A stretch of DNA of 64,000 nt from Biscogniauxia marginata (lineage: Eukaryota > Ascomycota > Sordariomycetes > Xylariales > Xylariaceae): NCBI GenBank assembly GCA_022695795.1, contig MU404060.1, positions 113,008-177,007 on the forward strand, written 5' to 3'. Below the pieces are notes generated by a model. It had not been told where the DNA came from, did no database searches, and saw only the letters and a list, made by a program, of their open reading frames with translations. The translations under genes were made by a program, and so were the position numbers. Below are positions 32,336-57,600 of this stretch, piece after piece. The stretch's first letter is position 1; the number at the start of each line of letters is the position of its first letter.

Positions 32336-35300
32336 CTAGTGGCTAGAATCTGCTTCCGGATACGGTAGCCTCTTCTGGCCCATCCGATCTCTGAAGAACG
32401 CTTCGGTTTCATACATCTTCGAACGCTTCATTCTCGTGGAGAGAATGTCTTCTTCCGTGTACAGGTTCTTCGATCTCTCCTTTTCTTCGATAATCTCTCC
32501 GTACATAATTTCTGCTCGCTGATAATCTGTTTCGCACTTTTGAACATCTGATGCACTTAATTTCTCTCTAGTGTATAGTCGGTGAGCTCGTTTACGATAA
32601 CTTAAAGCATGGTTCTCCTTGGCCGCAAGGAACATTGGGTGTGAGCGCCCGAGAGCCCGCGACATGATGTCAAATGCCTCTTGGTACTTAGTATCGGCGC
32701 CCTCGAAGTCCCCTTTCAAGTCACATAGTGCGGCCCCCTTCGCTATCGAGATTGCAGTGCTAGGATGTGGCCCTAGCGTTTTCCGTTTGACGCTGATAGT
32801 GAGGTTGAAAATGTCTTCAGCATTTTCGAAGGTACCCCGTAGCTGAAAGATCTGTGCGAGCTCTTCGGCAGCATCCAAAGTTACCGGGTTGTTAATACCC
32901 AGAAGTTTAACGTATGATAGGAAAACCTGACGATAAAGGGCTAGTGCATTACTCAGTTTACCGAGGCTTTTCATTGTGACAGCCATTTGGTGAACTGTGT
33001 GTATTGTGCGCGTGTCGACAGTACCAAAGTCTTCCTCTTGGTATCCCTCAAGAGAGATATAATGCGTTCTGGCCATTTCCATCTCGCCATTAGCCGCAGC
33101 ACTGTAGGCTTTCGCTAGTTCGACCCTTCGTCCTAGACGACGATCCTGACGAATAATATCATTGACTTGGAGGTCCTTCAATAGTCTGCGGCACTCAATT
33201 AGGTTATCTTGTTGCTGGTACACTGATGCCATCGATAATATCGTCTCTGTCTGTTCTACTGGCGTCATGCGGCCTGGGTTTTGTAGTGCCAGCGCGAAAC
33301 AATCGATAGCTTCTCTCCCTTCTCCCTGCCTCATAAATAGGCCGCCAAGCACGTGCCATTCTATCTCGAGTAACTTCTCAGAGTTATCTTTGAGAACATC
33401 TGACAACTCAAAACAGGCCTTGGCATGAGGCAATATCATACGCTCGGCAGTTTGAATGTCCCGGAGACCTCTTGTTGACTCCTGAAGGCGGATCAACCGA
33501 ACACAGCAGAAGCAAGCTAACCAGGCGCTATGGACTTTCGTCTGCCTACTAGTCATCCAAGTCGATCTTACCCACTCCCGAACGTTTTGATGAAGCAAGA
33601 ACTGGTCAGCTGAGCTCACGTGCTGTTCTGATGATAGCTTAGTCCCTGACTCAGACTGAGGAATTCGAAGCATGATGTTGAGTTCTTCAAATGTGGCTAG
33701 AACCGTGATCACTTTGTCTGGATGTGTTTTTTGTATATCTATGCTCCAGTCAGTAGGGCCTTACGTCCTTATAACATTTATTACTAACTTAAAATGCCGC
33801 CTCCAGTATCGCTAAAGCAAATCTCCTGTGCGACCTTGTATAGAAGCTTGAAGGGTAAAGCTTTTGGTGATAGCAATGAGCAGACCTGAAGTAATTCTGT
33901 TCCTAAAGGTGACTGTAGGCCTTGAAGCGAGGATTCAGGATTTTGCAACGCATTCAGGTATCCATACAACGTCTGCCTAGCCGTTCTCACACGAACTGCC
34001 GCACAAACTATAGCCTGGGGTAAGAAGTTGAGCTGTTTGACGATGTCTCGACACATCCTCTCTATAAGGTTTCGTGAGCAGTTACCGAGTTAATGGCGGT
34101 GATCGGACTTACCAGTTTCACCACCCGTATCAGATGGCACTGGAGTGGGATAAGCTATGCCACTCATTTCCCGAAAAAGTTCCATTGCATCCTCTTCGCA
34201 CCACGCCGGCATACGTAGCTCTTTCCCCCACGGACATGCAGCTCTGTCTTCAGATATGAAGATCATTCGGCCGTGACAAGAGAATGGGATGAAATCTAGA
34301 AGGTTGTAATTTCCTCGAACATTGTCGAAGACAAGGACCCATTTGTTGTTCTCTCGTAAAAGCCAATCCTTGGCCCCTTTGACGGCTGATTGGATATCGA
34401 CTGGTTCCAGTTGTTTCAAACAATGCTCCTTTAGCATGTCCTTGATGTCCGGAATGCCGAGATCCCTTTCCACGCGCTTCCTCGCTTCCTTAGGGTCAGA
34501 GATAGGGTCAGATAAATCCCTAGAGTAGCGCTTTTCGCCGTGATATTCGACAATAATTCTGAGAAGCTCAAGATAGCTAGCGATAATAGTCTCGCGACTC
34601 TCGGCATTTATCCAAAAACAGAAATTCATCTTGCTACCTACGTTCTCGCAGTAATCTCGTGCTAGGGTTGTTTTGCCTACGCCCGGTAAGCCGTGAATTG
34701 TGACCATATTGAAGTCATCAGTTGATATTGAGGACTGGAGCAGTCTCTCTAGTTCATCAGCAAGCCAGGTTCGGGTGACCAGTCTCGTATGGGGAACTGG
34801 ATGAGTGGGTTGAATATCAAAATCATTTTGGAGATACGAAAGTGCGTTGTCTTCTTCGTGACTAGTCAGTACAAGTCCTAACCAAACCACTTCGACTGTA
34901 AATACGACCCAGGATCTTACCGAGTAATGCATCGGTTAAGTTGTGTCGCTGCAGTTTGACTGATGCTCTTTCACTCCATTCACTGAGTAGTTTTCGAAAG
35001 ACCCTCATGAATTTCTGAAAGCAAGGGTCGTCATCACCCTGAAACTTCACTAACCCAGTATGGTTCCTCTCTAATGGAAGTCTTATTCTGTCACTCGATG
35101 TGTTCAACGTATTTGGCTCGCTGACAATCTAGTTACTACAAGTTAGATAGTAATTTGCACACAAATCGTGGGACGCTCACGAATTCCTTGTGACCACGAA
35201 AGGACGTTCTCTTCGTCTCATAGATTTCCAGGACCTTGATTTCCGACCTAATCGGCTTATAGGCTTGTAACTCATCAGTAAGCCACCTAGCGTCTTGGAT

Positions 35301-36003
35301 AGGCGATGGATCCTTTAAGGGCGTTGCCTTTGTCTCGTTATTTGGTTCAAGGAGAGATATTTTGCGGATAGTGGCTGCTAACGACTCCGGAGGGCTATCG
35401 TCATCAGGAGTTCCAAGATAGACGACTCCTCCAGTCGAGATTTCGATAGATCGAAGACCTTGATCTATCGACTCGCTCGAAAATATAAGTGCTCTCTTTA
35501 CTATCAAACCTCCGAGACTGTGTGCAATAAACACTATAGGTCTCGTCATTGTGCCTGTTTTTTGCCGGTAACGCACAAGATCATGAACTAAGTCGTGCGA
35601 GCGACTGTAGAGAACCATTCCAGCATAGGCCTCCGATCTAAAGAGATCTGGATCATACGAGTATGACATTATTCGAAGAGATTGGCCACATTTGTCCTTA
35701 GCGAGACCAGCTTCCAGCCAAGTTTGCCGTTTGCGCGTACCAGCGCTCCATGTCCACGATTTGAAGCCACGAGCCAAACCATGGACTGCGACGACGCTAC
35801 AGCAGAGAATATTAGCAAGAAACTCCCAGAGCGAGCTCAAATGAAGCATACTCTATTATTGATTCGCCGACTTCCGGATTATGAATGAGCTCAATATGAC
35901 CCAGCTCGTCTGTCGCGGGCTCATTTTCGGCACCCTTACTGCGACGCTGAAATAGCCCGCTCAAAACTCTCGCGGGTGCAAGAGTCTCCTGAATCACCAT
36001 CAC
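32336..36003 (-). CDS. NLR-type STAND receptor: alpha/beta-hydrolase - NB-ARC - TPR
   Basis: Six minus-strand exons: 36003-35852, 35796-35181, 35128-34921, 34853-34113, 34061-33789, 33738-32336; 3393 nt, 1130 residues. Residues about 40-250 form a PGAP1/DUF676-like alpha/beta hydrolase effector: IELIHNPE, VVAVHGLARG (oxyanion region) and the nucleophile elbow AHSLGG (Ser about 144). The NB-ARC/STAND NTPase follows: Walker A GLPGVGKTT (380-388) and Walker B WVLVFDNV (about 497-504). The C-terminal about 450 residues are TPR units (GREAIDCFALALQ, AEDIFNLTISVKRKTLGPHP, KYQEAFDIMSRALGRSHP). In known fungal NLRs, ligand sensing by TPR/WD/ANK repeats drives oligomerisation and switches on the N-terminal effector. 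The acceptor of exon 4 is CGAAG, 12 nt beyond a CTGAC branch point; the nearer CTAG is only two bases away and off frame. It lies directly downstream of a CHAT protease gene on the same strand. Confidence 0.88.
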
Positions 36004-36844: not shown

Positions 36845-38961
36845 CTAATACCCGTACTGATACCGATTCGAATAGTTTGACTGAGACTCGAAGGTGTTTG
36901 GCCAGTCGAGCTCGTCACTGTAGATCGAGCTTCCGTGTGACCAAAATTGTACACGTATAGGGCATTTTGGCACCCTCCACTCCCTCGGCATCCAATCATT
37001 CTCAAGTTTGAACCCTAATATAATAACATAATCTCGTTTATCAAGTTCAAGCAAGAATTTGCGGAATTTATCGATAATACTTTTCCGATCTGCGGTTCTA
37101 GACGCATTCCCATCACCATGAGGCTGTGCAATTATAGCCGTGAAAATATCATCTAGGCTGTCAAAGACATGAAGTGTGCCCCCTAAAGCTGGTGGTAACC
37201 GATGGATAAGGGCTGATCCAGGAGTGTGACGGTGCATCTCCTCGTACCACCGCGATACTACATTCTTGTCATTGGAATGACGTAGCTCCAACTTATGGAA
37301 CAAAACTTGGTCGATGAAGTTCGTTGACAGCCATACCTTGGCTAAGGACTTGATAGTTTCCCTCATATCCTCCTGGTGCTCTCGTGAGTCGCTCGCGTAG
37401 ATGACACGATATGTCTCAAGATATGTCTCTAATTCGAGAAAAAGCAGTTTAAGAGTAATGATACTACTATTCAATAACTTGGGAAGTTTGATTTGGACGT
37501 TATGACCTTGTCGTATTTGGGGTACATCACCAGCTCGTGGTCGTAAGCTCCTTTTGAGTGGAAACTTTAGCACCGACTTAATGTAGCTCTTCCAATATGA
37601 GGATTGGATAGGTGACACCCGGGGGTTATCGCGGGAGTAGTGAAGGAACAAGAAGTCGTCGCGGTACTGTCTCTCTCCAGGCCATCTGCGGTTATTAAAA
37701 CGTAACGATTGGCGTGCATCATGAGCAGCACTTTCGAAAGAAGGATGATGATTGTCGAGTAGGCTTTTGTAGAATACCTCGTTGAATGCCGAGACACTGT
37801 GCGTGCCTATCTTCCCCCAGACTGCCAGTACATTGCGGACGTTAGAACGGATGAACAGTCTCGCCATGTTGTTCGTTTCACCAGCCTCCTCGTAAGCCGA
37901 CCAGCAAGAAGTCATGACGATATTCTCTATGCGATATCGTAGTAGCGTTTTCGCCACATCTTTAACTTCTTCGCTCACGATTCCTTTGGGGTTGTCGCTT
38001 CTACCAGTTGCAAATATTAGTCTGCAAACCGCTGGTGTACTCTGAATATCACTAGTAGCTTCAGTGTTAACATTTAATGCACACCTGATACTTCACATTT
38101 AACCATTAAGCTGAAGTATAGGGGTACTTACTCGTCTCCGTGTAAGTCAAAATGGATAATGTTGAAATTGACCCCATGCTCTCTTCTCTTCTTCAAATGT
38201 TCATTGAGGTGGTTCAATGACCCAGGCCGTACAATTTCCAGCATGAACTTTGGTCGTCCATGATTAAGCCGTTCGTGGAGCTCCATTAAAGGACGTCGCG
38301 TCAAATCTGGCTCGACGTCTCGATTATTTCCCGTCTTCGTAAGGTCTCTAGCAATGACAAGCAGGATTTTGACCACGCCACTGGACGCTATCTGCATTGA
38401 AGAAAGAGTCTCAGCATGCGCAAATCGGACGCCATTTTTGTCGTCAAAGACACGGGACACAACAGCAGAATAACGAGGAGGCCAAGTGCTTCCAAATCCA
38501 ATACCCTCAAGAAGCTCCCATTTCAGGGAATGTATACTTCTTGAGTCTCGGGTGGGTGTTCCGTCTTCCTCCTCTATTATTGTGATGATGCATCCTGTTG
38601 CATCATTTATGAATGCGCCCGGTCGTGCTCGTCGAAACTCGTCAAGGCGTAGTGAATCGAGGAGCCTTTGGCCGCTTGTATTTAAGTGATCATCCCATTC
38701 GGAAAGACATCTGTGCCTATTCACAGCGATTGAACCGTCGAGGCTGTTTGCAATGGCAAGCACGTTTGCTGATTCGCGAACGTAATCGTTTAGCTCGGAC
38801 TCGTAGAATACTCGGGAGCATGGGTCGCGTAGGTAGCTGGTCCCAAAATCATGTTCATTAATTTGGATTCGAATTTCCCAATGTGGAGTGTTACAATTCT
38901 GGTGAGGTCGTCCCCGGGAAGTGCTAACAATGTAGATCTTGTCCATAATTATGGCGGGCAA
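36845..38961 (-). CDS. CHAT-domain (caspase-like) protease
   Basis: Two minus-strand exons, 38961-38132 and 38084-36845; the 47-nt intron (GTAAGT...TATCAG) splits a Glu codon; 689 residues. The CHAT domain (about 205-400) has the strand VVKILLVIARDL, then FNIIHFDLHGDE with the catalytic His (about 274), then IENIVMTSCWSAY with the catalytic Cys (about 337), then NVRNVLAVWGKI and AFNEVFYKSLL: the clan CD protease core. The N-terminal about 190 residues include RSIHSLKWELLE, common before fungal CHAT domains. The C-terminal about 280 residues match nothing I recognise; they lack a visible P-loop or clear TPR. The start could also be Met6. Known CHAT enzymes (separase relatives, bacterial Craspase, fungal gasdermin-linked CHATs) cleave one partner protein. 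The gasdermin-like gene diverging 644 bp away is the obvious candidate substrate. Confidence 0.85.
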
Positions 38962-39605
38962 CGCAACAGAATATTAATGTCAACATCTTGAGATCGAGGA
39001 ATAGTGTTTAGGAATGCAGAGTGTAGGAACGAAGGCGAGGCTGGCTATCGAGTTTTTTTATTCTACACTAGGTAACTCTTTCTCTTTTCTTATTTAATGT
39101 GTCGTATTTTCGGTGTAGGTTAGGTAGTGTAGCATTTACTCCAATAATGGGGGCGGCAAGACCCTTGTTGCAGCTGAATATCTATCGCAAGCCATTTCCC
39201 TTGGGTATTCGACTGGATGGAACAGATGAATCGATTGGAACGCCATCTTTGATACTACTCCACAATAAAGCTTGTATGCCTATTGCCATCCCGTTCCGCA
39301 CCTACATGGGGCTTGGATAGCATGACTACTCGCATATAGGGGCTGAGTCAAAAGGCAATTTTGCACTCCGAAATGCGAGCCTCGTAGGCCTCCCATCTGG
39401 AAGAGAGCTCATTGGTACACTCTCCTAGTACTGATTAATATAATACCCCTCAGCAAAATACGGGTGCCTCAATTCTGGAATAAGATGTTTTGTCCATCAA
39501 CCAGATGCACATACTTGTCCTCAAGCACCCATATGTCCTCGAGTTAGACTTGGATATTTGCCCCCAAACACTCAAAAGTAGGGAGATAACTCATTCAAAG
39601 TCCCT
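38962..39605. promoter_or_regulatory. Shared divergent promoter region of CHAT protease and gasdermin-like genes
   Basis: A 644-bp space between the start codons of two divergently transcribed genes. A short frame at 39099-39320 has no recognisable sequence. I see no defined operator; co-regulation is inferred only from the layout. Confidence 0.5.
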
Positions 39606-40487
39606 ATGAATAAGCTTTTAGTTCAGCCACGGAACCCACTGTTCCTGACATGCCCACCGATTCTCGCAAGCGAGTACCGCGACAAGCTAATGGGCGCTTG
39701 CGTCGTCAACCCTTATGATCCTATACACGCTTATTCTTCGGCTAGGGGGCAGAAACCCATCGATACTCTCCCCCAAATTGATCCTATTCCCGTTGAGATC
39801 GACAACTACTATAATATTTTGAACGCGAGCTCGAACGCGAAGGTGAAAGTGAAATTCGATCAGATTATCAGCTTGTTTTTCGAAAGGGATGGTAGTTCAA
39901 CAGAAGCACGAGAAGCGGCAAGCGCCAAATGGTGGAAGATGGAGACTCCCCATGACCACTTTCAAGATTTGATGGCCGACTCAGGATACAGGGATTCTGT
40001 CGTAGCACTTCTACGGAAGAACCCTAAAGAACCTGTATACTTCGTGACCAATATCCTAGCCTTGTCGACGCTCAAGATGGACAAAGCATTTCAACTTTCC
40101 ACAAAGTCAGGGGGTCATGCTGGAGTGCGTGATCCTAAGACCGGCATTTCGACACAGTTAGATGCTGAAGTTGGCCATTCAGCAGATCGATCAGCCGGGG
40201 GCGAGTTTCTCCATGAGATGATTGTCGGCTTGGGAGTCTACGAGATCTATCTGACAAAGCAGGAATCATGGAGGTGGCGTGCTGCACTGAAAAAGAGGAA
40301 CTCGGACCACATAATCCAGTCCGTACCAGTCCCGGAGAGAACTCTTCACGATCTCAGAATGGGTAGTTCTCTAGCGACCCCACCTGACGGCGCGCGGTTT
40401 CTAAGCAAAAGTAACCCGAACAAAGACCCCAGTACGCCAAAGAGTATGGATAGCACCCCAGCATTCGAGTTGTATTTCCCAGAGTGA
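39606..40487 (+). CDS. Gasdermin-like pore-forming cell-death protein (putative)
   Basis: Single exon, 293 residues, no signal peptide. The central part follows the fungal gasdermin (RCD-1/HET-Q1) layout: an AKWWKMETP strand with a following acidic/aromatic segment, then EPVYFVTNILAL, the counterpart of the conserved 'vYfVTgl-iA' strand, then a polar hairpin rich in Gly/Ser/Lys, and MIVGLGVYEIYL, which fits the last strand of the pore-forming domain ('dFIvGfrvrkI.Y'). The C-terminal about 60-70 residues (after roughly 230) are polar and Pro/Ser-rich, like the short autoinhibitory tail that fungal partner proteases remove. The length fits fungal family members of about 240-300 residues. Head-to-head with a CHAT protease gene, the context reported for many fungal gasdermins. 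I recognised it by pattern and neighbourhood, not by a search. The protein would permeabilise membranes and kill the cell once cleaved. Confidence 0.65.
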   Translation: MNKLLVQPRNPLFLTCPPILASEYRDKLMGACVVNPYDPIHAYSSARGQKPIDTLPQIDPIPVEIDNYYNILNASSNAKVKVKFDQIISLFFERDGSSTEAREAASAKWWKMETPHDHFQDLMADSGYRDSVVALLRKNPKEPVYFVTNILALSTLKMDKAFQLSTKSGGHAGVRDPKTGISTQLDAEVGHSADRSAGGEFLHEMIVGLGVYEIYLTKQESWRWRAALKKRNSDHIIQSVPVPERTLHDLRMGSSLATPPDGARFLSKSNPNKDPSTPKSMDSTPAFELYFPE

Positions 40488-41642
40488 GGATGAAGAAGAG
40501 TTTTCCATGATAAAAACGAATTGGATTGTTTTTTTGTCATGCATCAGAAGATATGGAGGAACCTGTGATTGTATTCTTTCAATCCAAATTTTTTGGTAGT
40601 ATAATTCGTTTAGCCAATATCTAGGAACAGTGAGGGCATACTTAGTTTAGGCGATTATCATTTTTACATCCACGAGTATCCAACTTCAATTTATTATCCT
40701 TTTTTTGTCGTGCATAGTTCGTGAGGTGCGCAGAACAAGGCGTCGACTGGTGTTGCGTAGCGAAGCTTACATCTCAACATGAAGCTACCATTACTTCACG
40801 CTCTCCGGTCATAATTTGCTCGGAACAAGACGGTACTTTGGTAGGTATTTGACAAGAAGACTTTTGAATTGAGCAAGATATTCGCAGACTAGGTTAGTGT
40901 AGTTACAAGAGCGAAGACTATGCTAGTTAAGGCGGCGATATGCGATCATAGGCATAGGTGAGTCCAGTCATCTATCAGTTAAGGTTCATTGATAATATGT
41001 TACATCAAAAAAGGGTTGCTATATTCTACACTAAACTTAAGTATATAACAGATCCTTTAACTCTCGTACGAAAAAACAACAGCCTCGACATTGGAGTCAA
41101 CGTGCATAGCTACTAGGGAGTTAGGGGAAGAGAGCCGGGGGAAACAACATCCCCCAATGAGTCACAGCAAATCCGTAAAGACAGGCTTTGCAGAGTTGTA
41201 GAGAACGATCTTAAAATTGCAAAGGTCGGGAATGTGTGGGTATACGCCGGCTGTAACGACAGTGAGGATGGAATGATATTGTTTTTCTTCGTAAATTGGG
41301 AGAATTATAACCCAACTTGGCACCCATATGATTAGCCCCTAATCAATGAAGGAGAGTCATTTGCCGGTATTTAACAACCAGGATAGGTCGGTGCATGCCA
41401 TTCTCTACCTATCTCTAGCCATTTTCACCGGGAGCATAATCTACAAATTTCTCAGAATGTTAAAAGTCTAACTTGAGCCCAACCCTTCACAGTTTATTTT
41501 TCATATTATACCCTATATATTCCTCTTAGTCCTAAATACACATCGCTTAACCCCAAACGTTTTCGAACTCCACGTCACAGTGGAATTAACACCTTGCCGG
41601 ACATTTTAATTAAGGATATTCTTATTATAACGTACCACATAA
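40488..41642. other. Intergenic, transition into AT-rich repeat DNA
   Basis: No gene seen. Base composition shifts from mixed to strongly AT-rich near 41.6 kb. Confidence 0.5.
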
Positions 41643-41790
41643 GCGAGTAGACGAAACAAGCTCGCGAACGAAATGGTTTTCTATATAAAATCGACTTTTT
41701 TGAAAATTCATAACTTTCTGTGTAAAAATCGCAAATATTTCGAAATTTTGTTTTTAGTTATATAATTATATAATATAACTTTATATCTAA
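41643..41790 (+). repeat. Half copy of the MITE-like inverted-repeat element
   Basis: Starts GCGAGTAGACGAAACAAGC and matches, in reverse complement, the right end of the element at 56997-57395, including the CTCGCGAACGAAATGG and TATATAAAATCGACTTTTT blocks. It stops exactly where an LTR starts (41791). Confidence 0.75.
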
Positions 41791-42025
41791 TGTGACGAAC
41801 CTCCCTATATGTTCTTAGTCAGTTAACCTCACAAGTAAGTACGTACTAGGTTTTCTTGTTTTAAAGGTAATAATAAATCGAGGTTAGTTTAAAAGGTTTA
41901 TAATGCTTTATTCGTTAAAGAGATTTTAAAATACTTTTATTATAGTATTAAAAAGTAATTATAATCTTAAATTAATAACTAAAAAACTAAAATAAATAAC
42001 TAAATATAAAAGAAATTTTAAGTTA
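41791..42025 (-). repeat. 3' LTR of element A (recognisable part)
   Basis: Begins TGTGACGAACCTCCC and follows the B LTR for about 230 bases (GTACGTACTAGGTTTTCTTG and onward). Beyond that it diverges from the B LTR, so its inner end is uncertain. Confidence 0.7.
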
Positions 42026-45000
42026 TTTATATAACTCTTTTTTAAGAATTAAATCTATTATTCTTCTTAATTATTTTATATAGATTTATCGTGATTTAAT
42101 CGTACTTAAATTATAATAAATCCTATTTTTAGTTAATAAAAGTAATTATTTAAAGTTACTTTGTTATTAGTTCACGAACCTCTTATTAAAAATCCCCTTT
42201 TTAGTTTTAAGTAAATCATAATATTATTTTTTTCTTTTTAAGATCTTTATTTTAAAAATAAATAAATAGGTAAACCTCGTTCTTTTGTCGCAAGGTTTAC
42301 TTTTTTTTCTTTTTTTCTTAACCTTTTTAATATATTAAAACGCATTTTTAAAACGAAACTTTTTATACGATTAAACTAACGGGCTTTTTAAAATACTTGA
42401 GCTTTATATATTTGTTAATTTAACTTTAAGGTTTTTTATTATTTAAATTATATTTACTTTAACGAGACTTCTTATTATATATTTAAAGGTTATTTTAATT
42501 ATTTGTTTTATACTTAATAATAAAAACTTTATAACGATTTCTTTATATTAATAAATACTTTAAAAAGTATAAAACAAAAAAGAAAAAAGTTAAAGTTATA
42601 ACATCAAGTTATTAAAAACCGTTTTAAACGATTACGGCTTTAAAAAAAACTTACTTAAAAAGCGTAAAAACGAACTTCTTAAAAAAGCAAAAAAAAGTAA
42701 AAATAAAATAATAGCGGCTTAGCGAGAAGCAGCGAAATACGGAAAAATCGCTATGTCGGCTTGAACTTAAACAAGGTGTACTTATTTCCGAGGTCGTCTC
42801 CTTTTTCGACTTATCTTTTTTAAGTTAAAATTTTAACTTTTAAGCCTTTTTAATCGATTTAGGTTTTAGCAATAAAAATTCGCAAATTTATTTATTAAGT
42901 TCTTTAAATAATTAAATAATTTTAAGTGTTTTTCTCGAGTAAATAACCTTCTTATTTAACAAAATATTATAATTAATTATTAATTTATTAAGGTTTTTTT
43001 AAGTTTTAATTAGTTTTTTAACGAGGCGTTTTTTAGTGCTAATTTTAGGAGTAAAACATGGAATATAAAGTATATTCTAATTTTTTTTTTAAAAAAAGTT
43101 TATAATTAATTTTCGAAACGATTTCTTTAATCTTATATAGTTTTAACTTTTTAAACTCGAGTTTTTTATTAAGTCGTTTTATTTTAATGCGTTCTTATTA
43201 ATATGTTTTATCGTTAACGAAATAAATAAATTATATCTTTTTTCTTAAAAATTAATTCTTTAATTTTTTTATTATAATATTTTATTATTTTGTTTTAAAT
43301 AAACTATAATTCTTTTTATAATCGTAATTATACTATTTAAACATTTTTAAATAATACCTTTACTTTCGAGGCTTTTATTTCGACTTTTAATATTTTCGTA
43401 AGTTCGATTAATTATTTTTAGATTTTTGTTTTTTAACTATATATTGTTTTATATAATGACATCTTTATATTCTTATTAATCGAAATATTATACACTATCT
43501 AAGCTACTAATAATAATTTTACCTAGTTATTTATTTCCTGGTTAATATAACTTCGGAAATATTATTTCATTATTTAGTTTAGTTTTTCTATTTATTCGTT
43601 TAACTAAAAATAATACATTATAAACAATTTTTATTTAACTTCTATTCGTTTCATTAAATCAATTTAAAACTTCGAAATAAATAACTTATTTTTATTTAAA
43701 ATAATGCGTTTTAATAATCCATATTTATTAATATACTTTCTTAAAAAACTAAAAACTAGCTATTTTATTATGCTTAACTTGTTAAACAATAAAAAGTAAA
43801 CATATTTCATAAGTTTATTAATAATTACTTATATACTATTATAAAGTACTTTTATAATAAGATCTTTTAACTTAGAAAGTTTTACTACGAAATCTCATAT
43901 AATTATATACCACGCTTTATTAAGTATTTAAATTAATTATAATAGTTTATATAGTTTATATTGTAATATTTTAACTTTATTATAAACGTTATAATTCTTT
44001 ATAACTCTTTTAATTATTTGTTGTATTCCTAGAAAATCAAATTCCTTTTAAAGTCGTTTTAATGTTTTAAAAATTCCTTAGTAACTATATAGAAAGTGTT
44101 TATAAAATTCCTTAACAAATTCGTCTTATACTCGTTTTAATATATAAACCTTTTCTTTATATAAAAGAAATTCGTTACTAAATCTTTATTAAAACTATAA
44201 TTATTTTTCCTTTTAATTATAACTTTCCTTAAAACGTTATTTCTAGTTTCTTATATTAATTTACATATAAATTAGCATAATTAATCCGTTATTTTATTAT
44301 TTAAACATCTAAATATCTTTTTTATTAATTTTTAATTTATAATCTCCTTTTTTATTAAAAAGATCTATTTAAATGTTTTTTTCCTTTAATATAATAAATT
44401 CTAAAATTAAAATTAAATAAAAAATTATTTAACGCTTATATTTTTAATTAAGCGTTTACGTTATTATAAACTATATAAGGTTTTTATAGTTTAAATAAAT
44501 ATTAATAGGTTTTTTAATTTCATTAAACCATAATTCTTATTCTTTTAATGCTTTAATAACTATTAATAATTCCTTATTATAAATTTAATAATTTAATTTA
44601 ATACTATGTAGTGCCTTAAATAAATACGCGACTAAGTATCATTTTCCATTATCTTTTAATTACTTTAAAACTACTTCGATAACGAAATTTAAGGCGTTTA
44701 TTTTTAATCGTTTTTTCTTGTTTTCATTTAAAAGTTTATATATAACCTTATTAATTATAACTTCTTTTAACTACTAAAAAACCTATTTAGCTTTTTAATA
44801 AAATAAAAAACTTTTTTTATTTTCATTAAAGTAATTAATTCTATTAATAACTTAATAATTCGCTCGAAATTTTAAATAAATTATTTAATATAATTAATAA
44901 AGCCAAAAAATACATATACGTTTATAACACTTTTAAGTTTTAGTTAATCTTTAATTATTACTATTTTTCCTTTTTAAATATAGATTTCTTTTAAACTTAT

Positions 45001-46256
45001 TATAAACCTTAAATAATTTAGTTTTTTAATATACTATTTATTTTTAATTAAATAAATAAGTAGGTTTACCTTTTTTAAGGCTTTTAACACTTATTTTACA
45101 TGTTTTTTATACTCCTTTTCGTTTTTTAAGTAAATAAATAAATATAAATTTATTTAAAAACTTATAAAGAATTGTTATAATTATATGTTAAAATATAGTA
45201 GGTGCGTTAATAAATCTAAATAACATAACCTTGTATTTATAATGTTTATATATTATTTAAAAGGCGGTGTATTATTTATATTTTTTAGCCATTTTAATTA
45301 TATAATAATTATTATAAAGGTTTAATGTTATAAAGATTTAAACCTTATTAATTTACTTTTTTATAAGTTTTATTAATAGTAACAAGTATTTATTCTTTTT
45401 TATTACTTTATTAAGGTGTTAATAATTAATTACTCGTCGTTATACTAAATTTCCTTTTTTATTAATACGTTACTTTTCGTTTTTATTAACCTTTAATATT
45501 ATAATTACTAGGTATCTTAACAAGAACTTTAATTCTCGAATATATCCTTTATTAAATTCCTTTTAAATTCCTTTTTATAATGCCTTTTATTTTTCTTGAT
45601 TTATAAAATATATTAAAAATAATTTTAATTACTTTCTTTTTTTAAAGTAATTTTAGTAATTTTATTAACTATATTTTAATAATTCTTTTTTTATTTTATT
45701 TTTAAATAATTTATAAAAACGGAGGTATTTACGTAATACTCTTTTCGTTAAATTTTTAAACTTAATTACTCGAATTATATAAACGATATATTTTGTTTTT
45801 ATATTCGTTTTTTTAATGTTATTTACGGTACTTATTTTATAACCCGTAATAATTAACTCCTTTTAATTTTAATCTTAATAAAGCGTATTTATCTCGAAAT
45901 TTATTTATAAATTGCTTTTTTTAAGTTAATTTATTCTTAAAATCATATCGTGATTTAATATATATATAATATTAAAAATGACTTACTTAAAATGTTTTTA
46001 AATAGTCACTAAAAAAGGAATTATTTCTCTTAACACCTTATCATTTTTATAACTAGATATATATTCTTTAAAGTTTTATAATTTATATAAACTTTATTTA
46101 TATATTTATAATATATTGTTTTTTTAAACTATTTTAATTAAAATATAGTTTTTATTTACTTTTAAATTTATAAGGGCTTTATACTCCCTTTTATTGTATT
46201 TAATTTTAGTTATAATGGTATTATTAAGTTTTAATTAAATTTCGTATAAAGACTTG

Positions 46257-46660
46257 TGTGACGAACCTCCCTGTGTGTTCCTAGTCAGCTGACTTCACAG
46301 GTGAGTACGTACCGGGTTTTCTTGGTTTAAAGGTAATAATAGGTTGAGATTGGTTTAAGTGATTTACGATGTTATGTTCGTTAAAGAGGTTTCAAGGTAC
46401 TCTCACTATAGTATTAAGGAGTGATTATAGTCTTAGATTAATAGCTAAAAAATAAATAACTAAATACATAAGAAATTCTAATTTATTTATACTCGTTCTC
46501 CCTTCATATAAAAACTTTCGAATCATTAAATCACTAATTCTTTATTTATAATTTAATAATTTATTAAATTATTAAATTATGGATTCTTAATTTATGATTC
46601 AACGATTTATTCTGGTTTACGTGACTTACACGTAACATAACACAAAAAAGGTTTATAACA
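46257..46660 (-). repeat. 3' LTR of element B
   Basis: 404 bp, TGTGACGAACC...GGTTTATAACA, same length as its partner at 53337-53740. Near-palindromic ends (TGTKACGAACC / GGTTCGTAACA). Confidence 0.88.
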
Positions 46661-46881
46661 TTATTTTTCCCTTCCGAGAATCTTTATCTCAAAGATAAAA
46701 AAGAGTGTAACTTAATTACTTTTTCTTTGGTTATTAGTGAGTTTTTTATTTCCACTTTAATATGTCTTATCGAGTCATAAAGAACTACAAAGAAATTCCT
46801 GAAATTTCTTGTCGTGCCCGGAAGTAAGTTAAAAATAAATTAGCCCTAGTAAACGTAGTTATTTTTAAAGGTCGAAAAGAA

Positions 46882-47232
46882 ATGCCTTGTTTTTACTGCG
46901 ATTGTAACGAGAAGGAATATATTGTTTTAAACGAATCCGATCGTTGTAATGAGTATATTCGGATGAATCGTACTCGATGCGACGTTTTTAGCATTTCTAG
47001 GAGTAGTGTAACCGAGATTACTAAGTAATTCCAAAAAATCGAAAACGAACTAGAAAAAGCTAAAACACGTTAAAAGGCTGCGATGGTTCACATTCGTCGC
47101 CTTCATATTTAATGTCGTTTTTAGTTTAAAAAGTTAAAAAAAATAATTATACGCGGTTTAAACTCTATTAAGGAGTTAAAGCGTATTAAGCGCGAGGAAA
47201 AAAAATAGAAACGTCTTGTTGAAAAATCGTAA
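46882..47232 (+). pseudogene. Antisense zinc-knuckle ORF inside element B, RIP-broken
   Basis: On the plus strand, opposite to pol, ATG 46882 opens a frame reading PCFYCDCNEKEYIVLNESDRC then IRMNRTRCDVF and later KKLKKIIIRG and GLNSIKELK. This is the pattern of a small fungal retroelement-associated protein with a CxxC...C...C...C cluster, a coiled-coil middle and a basic RRGL-SLDEL end. Four in-frame stops before the final TAA, three of them TAA and one TAG, fit RIP of Gln codons. It lies between the 3' LTR and the end of pol. Confidence 0.6.
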
Positions 47233-47299
47233 TGCTTAGAGGGATTATAGCGTTAATTTAAATCTTCGTAAGGTTTATTTATTTCTAAGGCTTACCTTT

Positions 47300-50200
47300 T
47301 TTCCTTTTTTAATCTTTCCTAGCAAAATTAAGATTTCGATATTTAAGCCTTCCTAGCCGGTCTAGATTTTGGCAGTGAAAATTTTTAATTTTATTTATTA
47401 GGTTCTTTAAATGCTTAAGAGGTTCCTAAGTATTTTCCTTGGGTGGGTAACCTTTTTATTTAATAAGATATTATAGTTAATTATTAATTTTTTTTGAATT
47501 TAGTATTTTTTTGACTTCGTATTTATTAAGATTTTTTTTAAATTCTAATTGGTTTTCTAGTATAACGTTATTTAATGTTGGTTTTAAAAGCGAAATATGG
47601 AATATAAGGTATATTTTAAATCTTTTTAGTAGTGTTAGTTTGTAGTTAATTTTCGAAATAACCTTCTTAATCCTATACGGTTTTAATTTCTTAAATTTAA
47701 GTTTTTCGTTAAGTCGTTTTATTTTAATTTAAGGTGTTTTTAATGTTACGCCTTGTTATTAACGAAGTAAGTAAATTATGTTTTTTCTCTTAAGAATTGG
47801 TCCTTTAATTCTTTTTTTATTATAGTACTTTATTATTCTATTTTAAATAAATTGTAATTCTTTTTGTAGTTATTATTATATTACTTAGATCTTTTTAGAT
47901 AGTACTTTTATTCTTAGGGCCTTTGTTTCGACTTTTGGTGTTTTCGTGAGTTTAATTAGTTGTTTTTGGGTTTCCGCCTTTTATTTGTATACTGCCTCGT
48001 ATAGTAATATTTTTATATTTTCGTTAATTGAAGTGTTATATGTTATTTGGGTTATTAATAATAATTTTACTTAGTTATTTATTTCTTAGTTAATATAGCT
48101 TTATAAATATTGTTTTATTATCTGGTTTAGTCTTTTTGTTTACTTGTTTATTTAGGGGTAATATGTTATAAATAACTTTTATTTGATTTTTATTTGTTTT
48201 ATTAGGTTAATTCAAAATTTCGACGTAAATAACTTGTCTTTATTTAAGATAACGCGTTTTAATAACCCATGTTTATTGATATATTTTTTTAAGAAGTTGA
48301 AAACTAACTATTTTGCTGTGCTTAATTCGTTGAATAATAAGAAGTAGGCGTATTTCGTGAGTTTATTAACAATTACCTATATGTTATTATAGGGTATTCC
48401 TATAGTAGGATCTTTTGACTCTAGAAGTTTCATTACGAAGTCTCATGCAATTATATTCTATGCTTTATCAGGTATCTGGGTTGGTTGTAGTAGTTTATAT
48501 GGTTTATGTCGTAATGCTTTAGCTTTATTATAAATGTTATAATTCTTTATAATTCTTTTAATTATTTATTATATTTCTGGAAAGTTGAATTCTTTTTAAA
48601 GTCGTTTTACCGTTTTGAAAATCCCTTAGTAGCTATATAGAGAATATTCGTGAAATTCTTTAACGAATTCGTTTTGTACTTGTTTTGGTACGTATACCTT
48701 TTCCTTATATAAAAGAAGTTCGTCGCTAGATCCTTGTTAAGATTATAATTATTTTTCTTTTTAATTATAATTTTTCTTAAAACGTTATTTTTAGTTTCCT
48801 ATATTAATTCATATGTAAGTTAATACAATTAATCCGTTATTTTGTTGTTTGAATATCTAGATATCTTTTTTATTGATTTTTAATTCATAATTTCCCTTTT
48901 TATTAAGAAGATCTATTTAAATGTTTTCTTTTCCCTTAATATGCTGGATTTTAAAATTAAATCTAAATAGGAAAATCATCTAACGCTCGTGTTTTTAGTT
49001 AAGCGTTTATATTGTTATAAATCGTGTAAGGTTTTTATGGTTTAAATAAATATTAATAGGTTTTTTAGTTTTATTAAGCTATAATTCCTATTCCTTTAGT
49101 ACTTTAATAATTATTAATAGTTCCTTATTATAAATTTGATAGTTTAGTTTAGCACTATATAGTGCTTTAAATAGGTACGCGACTGGGTACTATTTCTCAT
49201 TATCTTTTAGCTGCTTTAAGATTACTTTAATAACGAAATTTAAGGCGTTTATTCTTAGTCGTTTCTTTTTATTTTCGTTTAGAAATTTATATATAACCTC
49301 ACTAGTTACAACTTCCTTTAATTATTGAAAAGCCTATTTAGCTTCTTTAGTGAAATAAAAAGCCTTTCTTATTTTTACTAAAGTAATTAGTTTTATTAAT
49401 GGTTTAGCGATACGCCCGAAATCTTTAATGAGTTATTTAATATAATTAATAAAGCCAAGAAATGTGTGTACGTTTATGACACTCTTAGGTTCTAACCAAT
49501 CCTTAATTATTATTATTTTTCCCTTTTAAATGCGAATTTCTCCTAGATTTATTATAAACCCTAAATAGTCTAGTTTTTTAACATGCTATTTACTTTTAGT
49601 TAAATAAATAAGTAGATTTACCTTTTCCAAGGCTTTTAACACTTGTTTTACATGTTTCTTATATTCCTTTTCGTTTTCTAAGTAAATTAATATATCGTTT
49701 AAATAGATAAATATAAATTTGTTTAAAAACTTACGAAAAACTATTATAATTATATATTAAAATGTAACGAGTATGTTAATAAGTTTAAATGGCATAACCT
49801 TATACTTATAATATCTATATATCGTTTGGAAAGCTATATATTATTCGTGTTTTTTAATCATTTTAATTATATAATATTTATCGCGAAGATTTAATACTAT
49901 AAAGATTTAAGCCTTATTAATTTATTCTCTTATGAGTTTTATTAGTAATAACAAATATCCGTTTTTCTTGGTTATTTTATTAAGGTGTTAATAATTGATT
50001 ACTTATCGCTATACTAGGTTTCTTTCTTTATTAACATGTTACTTCCCGTTTTTGTCGACTTTAGGTACCATGATTACTAGGTATCTTAACGAGGATTTAA
50101 ATTCCTAAATATATCCTTTGTCGAGATCCTTTTAAATTCCCTTTTATAGTGCTCTTTATTTTTCTTGATTTATAAGATATACTAAAAATAATTTTAGTTG

Positions 50201-50820
50201 TTTTCCTTCTTTAAAGTAAATCTAGTAATCTTATTAGCTATATTTTAGTAATTCTTTTTTTGTTTTATCTTTAAATAATTTATAGAAACGGAGGTACTTA
50301 TACAGTACTCTTTTCGTTAAATCTTTAAGTTTAATTACTTGAATTATATAAGCGATATATTTCGTTTTTATATTTATTTCTCTAAAGTTATTTATGGTAT
50401 TTATCTTGTAACTCGTAGTGGTTGACTCCTCTTGTTTTTAATCCCAATAAAGCGTGTTTATCTCGAAATTTATTTGTAAATTACTTTTTTTAAGCTAATT
50501 TATTCTTAAGATTATATCGTGATTTAATATGTATATAATGTTAAAAATGACTTATTCGAGGTGTCCTTAAATAGTTACCAAGAAAGGGATTATTTTTTTT
50601 AGCACTTTATTATTCTCGTAACTAGATATGTTTCTTTTAAAGTTTTATAACTTATACGGACTTTATTTATATATTTATGGTATTTTATTTTCTTAAGCTA
50701 CCTTTATTGAGATATAGCTTTTATTTACTCCTGAATTTATTAGGGCTTTATATTTCCTTTTATTATACCTAATTTTAGTTATAATAATATTGTTAAATCC
50801 CGACTGGACTTTATATAAAG
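47300..50820 (-). pseudogene. Pol region of element B (protease, reverse transcriptase, RNase H, integrase), degenerate
   Basis: Position between gag and the 3' LTR, with the RT core at 49681-49730 (minus strand) as landmark. The parts downstream of RT would hold RNase H and integrase, but frames are too broken to mark domain borders. A parallel, more decayed copy lies at about 42850-46256. Confidence 0.7.
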
Positions 50821-53336
50821 ACTTATTATTCATGGCTTCTCGCTGCCTTATTAGCGAGAGCCTTTGCCGTTTTTTGGTTTTCTACGTTCCTTCCTTTTTG
50901 GTTTTCTTTTAGTTGTTATAACCTGGATGTCCTTTTATTCTTAGGCTTTTATAAGAGCGTATTTCCAGTAATTATTGCTTAAATAATCTCTTTAATTACT
51001 CTTTACATAGTAAGGGGTGAGAGGTTTGTTCTTTATATAGAATTTTACACATTGAAATTTCAATTTTTTTTCGAGAGCCTTTTTATAGCTTAAATCCGTT
51101 TTATTAACTCGGAATTTCTTGAAGTTTTGGATTATCCTTAAATAAAAAGAGTAATTATTAAGTTTGTTTATTAAGGGTATCTCGATATCTCCTTTTAGGT
51201 TTATATTGATTTCTAGGAGTTTCTTTCCTTTTTTGAGGTATGTTTTAGTGATTCGTTTATAACCTTATTTAGTCGTATGTGTTTTTACTTGTTATTTTAT
51301 TAAGTGTTTCCTTATAAAGCCGAATAAATTAGTGTCGTATTTAATTCGTTTTTCGAGCCATTATAGAAGATATAGTTCCTTCTATAATTCCTATAATTCT
51401 TCCTTTATCTCGTTTTCTTCGAAACCTGCTTTAAGTAAGTTATGTATGTCGCATAGTATCGAGGTGTAACACATGTAACCTTTGGCTATTGCTTCGTAGC
51501 TTTTTTCGGAGCTTGGGTGAAGATAACATGCTTTAAAGTAATGTGGCCATCGTGGGGTGTTATTATAAATACACTTATTTTCTTTCGTGTCGTTACTCTC
51601 TAGTTTTTAAGGATAGTAACTAGCTCTATTCTTAGAATTTTTACATACTTAATAAGTGTCATTAGTATAAAAGCTCTAATGTAATAATATATATTCCCTT
51701 AAGCTTTAATGGACATTACAGTTATTATCTATGCAAAGCCTCTAGTTTAGGCTATTATGCTGGTTTTTCCTTTAATAGGTTTCGCATTTGTCGTTCTTAT
51801 AGTGGCTTTAATGTAGATTACTATGGTTTAATTTAATTCTTAAGTTGTATTTTAACTTATAATTATCGCACACATATAGTAATTCGCTTTCGTTATATCT
51901 TTGTTTAGCTTGTTTTAGTGTAAAATGTCTTAAATATAAGTAGTTATTTTTTGGATAGTTTTTATAGTTAACTTAATAAGATCCACAAACTCCTTTTATA
52001 AAGGTCTTTTCGATTTTTTTTGCCTTAATGGTGTTAATAGTAAATACTTGGTTTATTTCTTCGTTGTTTTTGAATTAAACCCTTGTTTTGGCGACTCTTT
52101 TCTTAAGTTGAGGAATCCTTTTTGTTTTTAATTCTTGTTTCTTAGGACTTTAATACTCGTTTTTATAATGTTTTTTCTTTTTATAGTTAAAATATTTAAT
52201 GGTTAATTTATTTCGTTTCTTTCGTTCTTTTTGAATAACGTTAATTTTAATAGGATTTAACTTTGTTTTCGTGCTTTTTCTGGTTCTAATACCGCTTTTA
52301 TGATTTCCTCTTTTTAACTAGTCGCCATTCCTTCGTTATACCGTTTTTTTCTTTTCAAAGTACCGTTCGAAGTTTTTATTATTAATAGTAATTACTATTA
52401 TAATGTAATTATTAAACTTTTTTAGGTTCTTTTCTTTATATAGGTTTGTTTTATATAACTTATCTTTTATATGGTTTTTTAACCCTTAATAAAACAAGTA
52501 ATACAGGTTTTTAATAAGTAATTATAACTGGCTTGCGAGTTTTTTAAACTTAATAACGTAATTTAAAGTCTTTTTATTTTGTCGTAGTTTATAAAGTCGA
52601 GCTTCGGCTTATTACTTAAGGATTAAATTGCTAAATATAGATTTAAGTTGTTTTTTAAATTCTTTATAATTTTTGAAGATTTTCTTCGTGTTTTTTTAGG
52701 CGTTTAATTCGTTTTCTAGATAGTCTTTTAACACTGGTTAAAACCAGGTTAAAGCGGTTCTAGCTAAGAACTAAGATACCGTGAAAATCTTTTGTTTTTT
52801 AGTGGTAATTGTCTTATAATAGAATCGTAAGTAGGTTTTAACTTGAATTAAAAATCCTTTTAAATCGCTTAACTTATTATATCTACTAGGTGTAATTAGT
52901 TTAAAACCCTTTATGTCGGGGGTTGTTATGTTATTTTCGTCGTTTAAGTTGTTAGGGTCGCTATCGTCTAAAGGTGGTTACTTATTTTTAAGAGGTAGGG
53001 TTTATTTTGCCTATTTGTCTTTTTTTTTAGGTATTTTTTTCTCCTCCTTTTCTTCTTCTTTTGATGCTTCTTTTTACTGATCTTCCGAGATGTCCTTTTG
53101 TGACTCTTTTTTAGCTGTAATTATAATAGATTCTTGTGTTAGTTCTTTTAAACCTTTTTATTATACCGTAAAAAGATTTAAAGCTTTCGTTTAAAAGCTT
53201 GTTAATTATTGTTTTTTTACTTGTTTTTTTTCTTGTTACCCTTTAGTCTTAAGGGGTATGCTTATCTTGGGACTGTTTCGATTAAAAGTCCCTCTTTTTG
53301 AATCAATGTTAAGCATTAATTAAAGAATTATTAAAA
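50821..53336 (-). pseudogene. Gag region of element B, degenerate
   Basis: Internal sequence next to the 5' LTR. A strongly mutated relative lies at 53741-56530 (both begin with TTCTCGCTGCC/TTCTCGTTACT-type sequence close to 50837 and 53757). No intact frame. Assigned as gag by position only. Confidence 0.55.
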
Positions 53337-53740
53337 TGTAACGAACCTCTTTATGTATTTCTAGTTAGCTAACTTCATAGGTAAGTACGTACTGGGTTTT
53401 CTTGGTTTAAAAGTAATAGTGGGTTGAGATTAGTTTAAGTGATTTACGATGTTATGTTCGTTAGAGAGGTTTTAAGGTACTCTCATTATAGTATTAAGGA
53501 GTGACTATAGTTTTAGATTAATAGTTGAAGAATGAATGACTAGATATATAGGAAATTCCAATTTACTTATACTCGTTTTTTTCTCACATAAAAACTTTTG
53601 AATTATTGAATTATTGATTCTTTATTTATGATTTAATGATCTATTAAATTATTGAATTATGGATTTTTAATTTATGATTTAACGATTTATTCTGGTCTAC
53701 GTGACCCACACGTGACACAGCACAAGGAAGGTTCGTAACA
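53337..53740 (-). repeat. 5' LTR of element B
   Basis: 404 bp, TGTAACGAACC...GGTTCGTAACA. In the minus orientation this is the promoter-bearing LTR. Followed by the target duplication ACTTG. Confidence 0.88.
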
Positions 53741-55570
53741 ACTTGCTATTTATAGCTTCTCGTTACTTTATTAATAAGAGCCTTTATCGTTTTTTAGTTT
53801 TTTACGTCCCCTCTTTTTTAAGTTTCTTTGAATCGCTACGGTTTTAATGTTTTTTTATTTTTAAGCTTTTATAAAAACGTGTTTTTAGTAATCGTTATTT
53901 AAATAATATTTTTAATTATTTTTTAAGTAATAAAAAATAAAAAGTTTATTCTTTATATAAAACCTTATATATTAAAATTTTAATTCTTTTTCGAGGGCCT
54001 TTTTATAACTTAAGTTTATTTTTTTTATTAATTTAAAGCTTTTTAAAGGTCTAAATTATTTTCGAATAAAAAGCATAATTCTTAGATTTACTTATTAGGA
54101 ATAACTTGATATTTCTTTATAAGTTTATATATATTTCTAAAAACTCTCCCTTTTTTTAAAAATATATCTTAATAATTTGTTTATAACTTAATTTAATCGT
54201 ATATATTTTTACTTATTATTTTATTAAGTATTTTCCTACGAAACTAAATAAACTAATATTATATTTAACTCGTTTTTCGAGCTAATATAAAAGGTGTAAT
54301 TCTTTTTTATAATTCTTATAATTCTTTTTTAACTTCGTCTTTTTCAAAACCTACTTCGAATAAATCATATATATCGCATAGTACTAAGATATAATATATA
54401 TAACCCTTAATAATTATTTTATTACTTCTTTTAAAACTTAAATAAAAATAACATACTTTAAAATAATATAACTATCGTGAAACGTTATTATAAATACACT
54501 TATTCTCTTTTGTGTTATTACTATCTAGTTCTTAAAAATAATAATTAACTTTATCTTTAAAGTTTTTATATACTTAATAAACATTATTAATATAAAAGCT
54601 TTAATATAGCGATACATATTCCTTTTATAACTCTATTATTCCATCCTTATTAAGGTAAAATGTTTCGTTTTTTAGTTATTTTTTTTAATTTAAGTTTTTT
54701 ACTTAATAACCTATTAAACTAACTAGCATTATTTAAGTTTTAATAAATATCGTAATTATTATTTATATAAAACTTTTAATATAGGTTATTATATTTACTC
54801 CTTTTTTAATATGTTTCGTATTTGTTATTATTATAATGGCTTTAATATAATTCATTATAATCCGATTTAACTCCTAAGTCGTATTTTAACTTATAAGTAT
54901 TATATTTATATAGTAATTCATTTTCGTTATATCTTTATCTAGCTTGTTTTAACATAAAATATCCTAAATATAAATAACCATGCTTTAAACAATCCTAAAA
55001 ACTAACTTAATAACATTTATAACCTTCGTAAATTATAACGAATAAATAATAATACCTTAAATAATATTTATAAACTCTTTTTTTATAACTTTAATAAACA
55101 TTATAACTTTTTTTTATAAGAACTTCCTTGTTCTTCTTTATTTTAATAATAATAATAATAAATACTTAATTTACCTTTTTATTATTTTTAAAATAAACTC
55201 TTATTTTAAAGGTTTTTTTCTTAAGTTAAAGAATCCCTCCTGTTTTTAGTTTTTATTTCTTAAGATTTCGATACTTATTTTTATAATATCCTTTTTTCTT
55301 ATAATTAAAACACTTAATAATTGATTTATCTTGTTTTTTTTGCTTTTTTTAAATAACGTTAATTTTAATAAAGTTTAATTTAGTTTTAATGCCTTTTCTT
55401 ATTTTAGTACTACTTTTATAATTTCCTTTTTTCTGTTAATCGCCGTTTCTTCGTTATACCGTTTTTTTAAAGTACCGTTTAAAGTTTTTATTATTAATAA
55501 TAATTACTATTATAACGTAATTATTAAACTTTTTTAAGTTCCTTTCTTTATATAAGTTTATTTTATATAA

Positions 55571-55666
55571 TTCATCTTTTATATAATTCATCTTTTATAT
55601 AATTCATCTTTTATATAATTCATCTTTTATATAATTCATCTTTTATATAATTCATCTTTTATATAA
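55571..55666. repeat. 16-bp tandem repeat, six units
   Basis: Unit TTCATCTTTTATATAA repeated head to tail about six times inside the gag side of element A; the same site in element B has a single related unit. Confidence 0.85.
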
Positions 55667-56530
55667 TTCTTTAATCCTTAATAAAACAAATAATATAGGC
55701 TTTTAATAAGTAATTATAATTAACTTACGAGTTTTTTAAACTTATAACGTAATTTAAAGCCTTCTTATTTTTTTATAATTTATAAAATCGAGTTTCAGCT
55801 TATTATTTAAGAATTAAGTTATTAAATATAAACTTAAGTTATTTTTTAAACTCTTTATAATCCTTAAAACCCTTTTTTATGTCTTTTTAAGCGTTTTATT
55901 TATTATTTAAGTGATTTTTTAATACTAGTTAAAACCAGGTTAAAGCAATTCCGACGAGGAGTTAAAATACCATAAAAACTTTTTATTTCTTAATAATAAT
56001 TACTTCGTAATAAAACCGTAAATAGGTTTCGGCTTAAATTAAAAATCCCTTTAAATCACTTGACTTATTATATTTATTAAGTATAATTAATTTAAAACCT
56101 TTTATATCGAGAGTTATTATATTATTTTCGTCGTTTAAGTTATTAAGGTTATTATCGTTTAAAAGTAACTTTAATTATTTATTTTTAAGAAGTAAAAATT
56201 ATTTTACTTATTTATTTTCTTTTTTAAATGCTTTTTTTTCTCCTTTTTTTTTCTTTAAATAATTTTTCTTGTTAAGTTTTAAAAGTGTCTTTTTAAGGCT
56301 CTTTTTTAGTTATAATTATAATTAATTTTTATATTAATTCTTTTAATCCCTTTTATTATATCGTAAAAAAATTTAAACCTTTTATTTAATAACTTATTAA
56401 TTATTATTTTTTTACTTATTTCTTTTTTTATTATCTTTTAGTCTTAAAAGGCATATTTATTTTAAAACGGTTCGATTAAAAGTCTTTTTTCCTAAATTAA
56501 TATTAAGTATTAATCAAAAAATTATTAAAA

Positions 56531-56996
56531 TATAATAAACCTCTTTATATGTTCCTAGTTAATTAACTTTATAAGTAAATACATATTAAGTTTTCTTAAT
56601 TTAAAAATAATAATAAATTAAGATTAATTCAAGAAATTCACAATATCTTATTTATTAAAAAGATTTCAAGGTACTTTTATTATAATGTCAAGGAATAATT
56701 ATAATCTTAAATTAATAACTAAAAAATAAATAATTAAATACATAAAAAATCCCATCTTTTTTATATTTATTCTCCCTTTATATATTCCTTCCTTTTTTAG
56801 TATGTTAAATACCTTTAAATTACCTTATCCACAATGATTTATTTTATACTATTAAATAGATACGTTTGAATTACTTTATTTATTAAGATCTATATCACGT
56901 GATGTTGCATCCAAATCCTCCATCCTGTTAACATCCCTATGGTCCGTGTCCCAACACCCCTGTAGAAAACCCCTTTAACAGGTTAGGTTCGTAACA
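56531..56996 (-). repeat. 5' LTR of element A
   Basis: About 466 bp, starting TATAATAAACCTC (RIP form of TGTAACGAACCTC) and ending GGTTAGGTTCGTAACA. The first about 220 bases match the B LTR; the second half does not, and instead resembles the LTR at 63591 (GTATGTTAAATACCTTTA, ATATCACGTGATG). Confidence 0.8.
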
Positions 56997-57395
56997 GCGA
57001 GTAAGTCATTTAATTTCTTATATAAAATCGACTTTTTTAAAAATTCATAACTTTACACATAAAAATCGTAAAAGTCTCGGACTTTTTTTTATAGTTATAT
57101 AATTATAAGTTTTAATTAAAAGTATAATCGAAAAAATAGATTTTAAGAAACGCGAAAAGAAAACGCGTAAAAACTAAAATTAAAATAAAACGTATAAACT
57201 TTTTTACGTATTTCTTTATATATTTCATTTTTTGATTTTTTTTTTAATTTTACTTTTAGTTAAACTATATAGTTATATAACTAGAAAAAAAGGTTCGAGA
57301 TTTTTCCGACTTTTATAAGTAAAGTTATGACTTTTCGAAAAAGTCGATTTTATATAGGAAACCATTTCGTCCGCGAGCTTGTTTCATTTACTCGC
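56997..57395. mobile_element. MITE-like element with long inverted repeats
   Basis: About 399 bp. The left arm has GCGAGTAAG, TATATAAAATCGACTTTTT and ATTCATAACTTTACACATAA; the right arm shows the same blocks in reverse complement (AAAGTTATGACTTTT, AAAAAGTCGATTTTATATAGG, TACTCGC). Arms of about 90 bp surround an AT-rich middle. No coding frame. Half copies lie at 41643-41790 and 63354-63590. Confidence 0.7.
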
Positions 57396-57600
57396 TTGTG
57401 TAATACGTTAAATATAGTTTTACGCGTTTTAATAATAATAATAAGTATATTATTTATAAATTAATCGATTTAAATTACGCGCTAAAAACCGAATATTTAA
57501 TATAAAAAAGGTATTTAATTTTTAACCCCCTCATCAGTTTCCAATCCTCTACACCAGACAGTTTTTTTTACTTTGTGAACAACAACTTCAGAACCGAGAA
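57396..57600. other. Border of the AT-rich island
   Basis: GC content rises sharply around 57.53 kb, marking the end of the RIP-affected block. No gene. Confidence 0.5.

What the first reader, a model, noticed from the sequence alone, without database searches (positions are those of the whole stretch)
36845..40487. CHAT protease and gasdermin-like gene pair, head to head: a putative cell-death switch
Seen: a protease gene with both CHAT residues (His in HFDLHG, Cys in MTSCWSAY), and 644 bp away, diverging, a 293-residue protein with the fungal gasdermin layout (EPVYFVTN strand, MIVGLGVYEIYL strand, short polar C-terminal tail). Known: fungal gasdermin-like proteins (RCD-1, HET-Q1) are executed by proteolytic removal of a short tail, and their genes often neighbour subtilisin or CHAT protease genes. 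Inference: this pair forms a protease-activated pore system, analogous to caspase-gasdermin pyroptosis.
Basis: partly seen in the sequence, partly recalled or inferred. Interest (0 to 1): 0.9.

Follow-up and report, generated by a model that had tools for sequence, protein, structure and literature searches.

The report
Fungal protease–gasdermin cell-death gene pair
Two neighbouring genes in a fungus look like a known kind of self-destruct switch, a caspase-like cutter beside a probable membrane-hole-punching protein; the pairing recurs in related fungi, but the hole-puncher's identity rests on weak structural evidence.

Summary

Most likely this is a CHAT-activated fungal gasdermin pair, a kind already described. 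Unusual points: a divergent gasdermin branch, and a CHAT protease without TPRs but with an unidentified C-terminal domain.

The parts
38132..38946 (-). CHAT protease gene, exon 1 (ATG at 38946; residues 1-271 and two bases of the next codon; N-terminal half and the start of the active half of the CHAT fold)
   Evidence: matches P0010
38052..38131 (-). intron, 80 bp, GTAAGT...CTACTAG
   Evidence: acceptor giving exon 2 from 38051 yields 673 aa, the length and sequence of P0010
36845..38051 (-). CHAT protease gene, exon 2 (rest of the CHAT domain to about residue 415, low-confidence stretch about 414-477, conserved C-terminal domain about 478-645)
38140..38142 (-). codon of His269 (HFDLHG), presumed catalytic
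   Evidence: sequence; invariant in 17 of 17 aligned relatives
37904..37906 (-). codon of Cys321 (MTSCWSAY), presumed catalytic
   Evidence: sequence; invariant in 17 of 17 aligned relatives
38947..39605 (.). shared upstream region between the two divergent ATG codons, 659 bp
39606..40487 (+). gasdermin-like protein, 293 residues, one open frame
39639..40340 (+). stretch (residues 12-245) that aligns collinearly with RCD-1-2; well-conserved predicted strands are residues 144-156 and 199-217
40341..40484 (+). C-terminal tail, residues 246-293, 5.25 kDa: variable linker 273-283 (26% mean pairwise identity), then conserved stretch 284-293 with FxLYFP (67%)
32336..35849 (-). neighbouring NLR-type gene in several open frames: alpha/beta-hydrolase (PGAP1/DUF676-like), NB-ARC/AAA_16, TPR. 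A part of the system only by proximity

Best explanation
A two-gene cell-death module of the known fungal CHAT-gasdermin kind. Shown: the CHAT protease has an intact His/Cys pair and a conserved extra C-terminal domain; the small protein is a conserved partner encoded next to it in at least two genera. Weakly shown: the small protein has a gasdermin-type pore domain (about residues 11-252) followed by a short tail. Inferred: the C-terminal domain of the protease senses an unknown trigger; the activated protease then cuts the gasdermin in or before the variable linker (between about 246 and 283), releasing the conserved FxLYFP latch; the freed domain oligomerises in the plasma membrane and kills the cell, as defence against a parasite or after fusion with a non-self strain.
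Confidence: 0.7

Rival explanations
1. The small protein is a protease-activated partner of the CHAT enzyme but not a gasdermin: a different effector, for instance another membrane-active protein, released by cleavage of its tail.
For: Conserved pairing and the linker-plus-latch tail need no gasdermin fold; the sequence searches for gasdermin that were run are empty.
Confidence: 0.18
2. The small protein is an inhibitor or adaptor of the CHAT enzyme, so the pair is a sensor with its regulator and the real substrate lies elsewhere.
For: Divergent neighbours with a shared upstream region may be co-regulated; an NLR-type gene lies 1 kb beyond.
Against: Same structural hint as above; a conserved short latch after a variable linker suits a substrate better than an inhibitor.
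Confidence: 0.07
3. Unrelated neighbours: the two genes stay adjacent only because the genomes share gene order.
For: Three of the four other pairs are in one genus, Apiospora, so they are not independent.
Against: The pair is also together in Biscogniauxia (Xylariales) although the partners are only about 42-53% identical to those of Apiospora (Amphisphaeriales). The small-protein family is rare, 9 members found in all.
Confidence: 0.05

Closest known systems
Fungal CHAT / gasdermin two-gene clusters (Q2-L proteases; a TPR-bearing CHAT protease activates its neighbour gasdermin in Podospora anserina)
   Same: CHAT gene next to a small putative gasdermin gene, conserved pairing, short C-terminal tail. 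The reviews give about 17-19% of fungal gasdermin genes as linked to CHAT or cysteine proteases (passages).
   Different: This protease has no TPR, ANK, WD40 or NB-ARC match in Pfam but an unidentified C-terminal domain. The gasdermin is too divergent for the sequence searches run here.
HET-Q1/HET-Q2 of Podospora anserina
   Same: HET-Q1 has 278 residues and loses a tail of about 40 residues (5 kDa) to a protease (passages); here 293 residues and a tail of 41-48.
   Different: HET-Q2 is a subtilisin-type S8 protease and an idiomorph at the same locus (passages); here the protease is CHAT and both genes are in one genome.
RCD-1-1/RCD-1-2 of Neurospora crassa
   Different: RCD-1 lacks the inhibitory C-terminal part and no cleavage step has been seen (PMC11760362, sections 4 and 6).
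TPR-CHAT (Csx29, Craspase), SAVED-CHAT and separase
   Same: Caspase-like fold; separase and Craspase align over residues 1-415, SAVED-CHAT over 183-415.
   Different: Different regulatory parts; sequence identity 8-15%.

Membership tests
CHAT proteases (PF12770) | Match to the CHAT profile above the curated cut-off | tested here: met
   27.2 bits against 24 for P0010; 17 of 17 aligned members match at E up to 1
CHAT proteases (PF12770) | Catalytic His (HG) and Cys (motif recalled) | tested here: met
   His269 and Cys321 invariant in 17 of 17. Six of the 23 hits were left out of the alignment. Of these, P0014 lacks this stretch in its deposited model, P0015 lacks the His part but has the Cys, P0031 has both; P0028, P0029 and P0032 were not read
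CHAT proteases (PF12770) | Caspase/separase-like fold | tested here: met
CHAT proteases (PF12770) | Proteolytic activity | not testable with these tools
   needs an enzyme assay
Fungal gasdermins | Sequence similarity to known gasdermins | tested here: inconclusive
   No match in Pfam, PADLOC or PDB sequences. No known fungal gasdermin sequence was at hand as a control, so the power of these searches is unknown
Fungal gasdermins | Gasdermin pore-domain fold | tested here: inconclusive
Fungal gasdermins | Short C-terminal tail (protease-controlled kind) | tested here: met
   41-48 residues, 4.4-5.3 kDa, beyond the aligned domain; the domain end rests on the weak structural match, and that the tail inhibits is not shown
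Fungal gasdermins | Gene next to a protease gene | tested here: met
   CHAT gene 659 bp away in the window; neighbour by locus tag (3) or contig length (1) in 4 of 8 relatives
Fungal gasdermins | Membrane pore formation and cell death | not testable with these tools
   needs experiment
NLR with protease domain | NB-ARC or NACHT fused to the protease | tested here: not met
   Pfam finds only CHAT in the 673-residue protein. The NLR-type gene at 32336-35849 is separate

The most novel reading that the evidence does not exclude
A three-gene fungal 'inflammasome' laid out as separate parts: an NLR (hydrolase-NB-ARC-TPR) next to a stand-alone caspase-like CHAT protease with a new kind of sensor domain, next to a highly divergent gasdermin. 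This is closer to the animal layout, where receptor, caspase and gasdermin are separate proteins, than the fused receptor-proteases of fungi in the passages seen.
Probability: 0.1. Interest if true: 0.75.

Novelty: new member of a known kind. Interest (0 to 1): 0.42.

Why it matters
If the small protein is a gasdermin, it marks a branch of fungal gasdermins that the sequence searches run here miss, and suggests that gasdermin counts in fungi made by sequence profile may be too low. It would also name a CHAT protease with a sensor domain of unknown type, shared at about 30% identity with Claviceps, Epichloe and Metarhizium proteins, and so give a concrete entry to the open question of what triggers fungal pyroptosis-like death.

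Tried and rejected
Second-round profile search from the 9-member alignment: the same 9 proteins, no bridge to known gasdermins (only the 7998 candidates sharing most words were scored). Paralogues in the same genome with P0001 and P0007 at E 10: only the gene itself. Pfam Gasdermin PF04598 in the same genome at E 10: none. Bridge by location: gasdermin-like frames near the three other CHAT genes (six stretches) and near Peptidase_S8 genes (25 matches at 20 places; stretches fetched around 13 of the 20). The profile of the 9 was run on the frames with no hit above chance except the gene itself. The later stretches L032-L034 were only read by eye. A motif pattern recalled from memory and run found nothing, but it does not match the gene in question either, so it says nothing. 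Viral contigs: 59 pattern matches, none a relative. Foldseek of the gasdermin candidate: 49 matches, none below E 1, many of them T-cell receptor chains, so meaningless taken alone.

The idea that the 293-residue ORF is a chance ORF was rejected (8 homologues).

Full report
Where it is. The window lies on a 782,855-base contig of a 45.3-Mb genome. The spliced CHAT protein is 99% identical over its whole length to F5X99DRAFT_368783 of Biscogniauxia marginata, listed with the same longest-contig length (P0010); the splice at 38051 reproduces it. That is the likely source (Sordariomycetes, Xylariales).

How it differs from the genome's other CHAT genes. Three others are found. All three are long TPR-CHAT proteins, and none has a frame resembling the small protein in the fetched stretches.

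The small protein. The 293-residue ORF has 8 relatives: Seiridium, Neopestalotiopsis, four Apiospora species, one JGI record and one unlabelled record. A profile search adds none. It is the only match in its genome. It has no hydrophobic stretch of transmembrane-helix strength (maximum 19-residue mean 0.90). Mean pairwise identity, counted on 8 rows with the truncated P0009 dropped, is high at residues 11-40 (77%), 67-112 (66%), 144-156 (83%) and 199-217 (68%), falls to 26% at 273-283 and returns to 67% at 284-293, where FxLYFP is kept in 8 of 8; in three of these (P0003, P0004, P0006) 8-14 further residues follow it.

Is the pair real? Consecutive locus tags occur in A. saccharicola, A. marii and A. 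phragmitis; in one JGI pair the two proteins have the same longest-contig length of 16,107 bases, so presumably one contig. That is 4 of 8 relatives of the small protein. In the other four (Seiridium, Neopestalotiopsis, A. aurea, one unlabelled) no CHAT partner appears among the 23 hits; it may be absent, of another kind, unannotated or hidden in a cluster. From the protease side, 4 of the 5 closest relatives are paired; the Apiospora sp. TS-2023a protein and the 17 distant ones show no partner here. Three of the four pairs share a genus and are not independent; the Biscogniauxia pair, in another order, is the stronger point. Orientation in the relatives is not known.

The neighbour NLR. Frames at 32336-35849 carry alpha/beta-hydrolase, NB-ARC and TPR matches, the layout of fungal NLRs with a hydrolase (SesB-like) N-terminus (passages of PMC9815663; applying the name to this gene is mine). 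Its first frame starts about 1 kb beyond the CHAT stop codon on the same strand. Whether it belongs to the system is untested.

What is known. Reviews state that about 80% of fungal gasdermin genes neighbour a protease gene, about 17-19% a CHAT or cysteine protease gene, that a TPR-bearing CHAT protease was shown to activate its neighbour gasdermin in Podospora, and that some of the proteases are NLRs (passages only of PMC12881547, PMC10197012 and PMC10989679). Of PMC11760362 I saw the abstract, outline and sections 4 and 6. The primary paper (Clave et al. 2022) was not held and is known to me only through these reviews. Searches for gasdermin with Apiospora, gasdermin with Biscogniauxia, and fungal gasdermin with Xylariales found no paper in the held library; that says nothing about papers outside it.

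Verdict. A probable new member of a known kind of system, with two unusual features: a gasdermin branch that the sequence searches run here do not detect, and an uncharacterised candidate sensor domain. Cleavage, pore formation and death remain inference.

Noticed in passing
window 42001-58000: AT-rich block (GC 0.16-0.27 in 2-kb steps) with raised TpA/ApT (1.20-1.33) and lowered (CpA+TpG)/(ApC+GpT) (0.44-0.70) in the 4-kb steps from 40001 to 56000, as expected of repeat-induced point mutation; it begins within about 1.5 kb after the gasdermin-like gene.
   Followed up: partly
window 32336-35849 (-): NLR-type gene in several frames (alpha/beta-hydrolase, NB-ARC, TPR) beside the pair.
   Followed up: partly
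L007:7265-9256 (+) and L010:6919-9030 (-): Peptidase_C14 (caspase domain) genes lie within 10 kb of two of the three other CHAT genes (TPR-CHAT) of this genome.
   Followed up: no
L011:4814-5896 (-): A 361-residue open frame without a Pfam match, upstream of a TPR-CHAT gene on the same strand; a possible partner of another kind.
   Followed up: no
CHAT protein residues 416-673 (window 36845-37621, -): C-terminal region, conserved in the distant CHAT relatives (Claviceps, Epichloe, Metarhizium), with no Pfam match and an untested fold.
   Followed up: partly
window 13449-14441 (-): Arylamine N-acetyltransferase-type gene (Acetyltransf_2).
   Followed up: no
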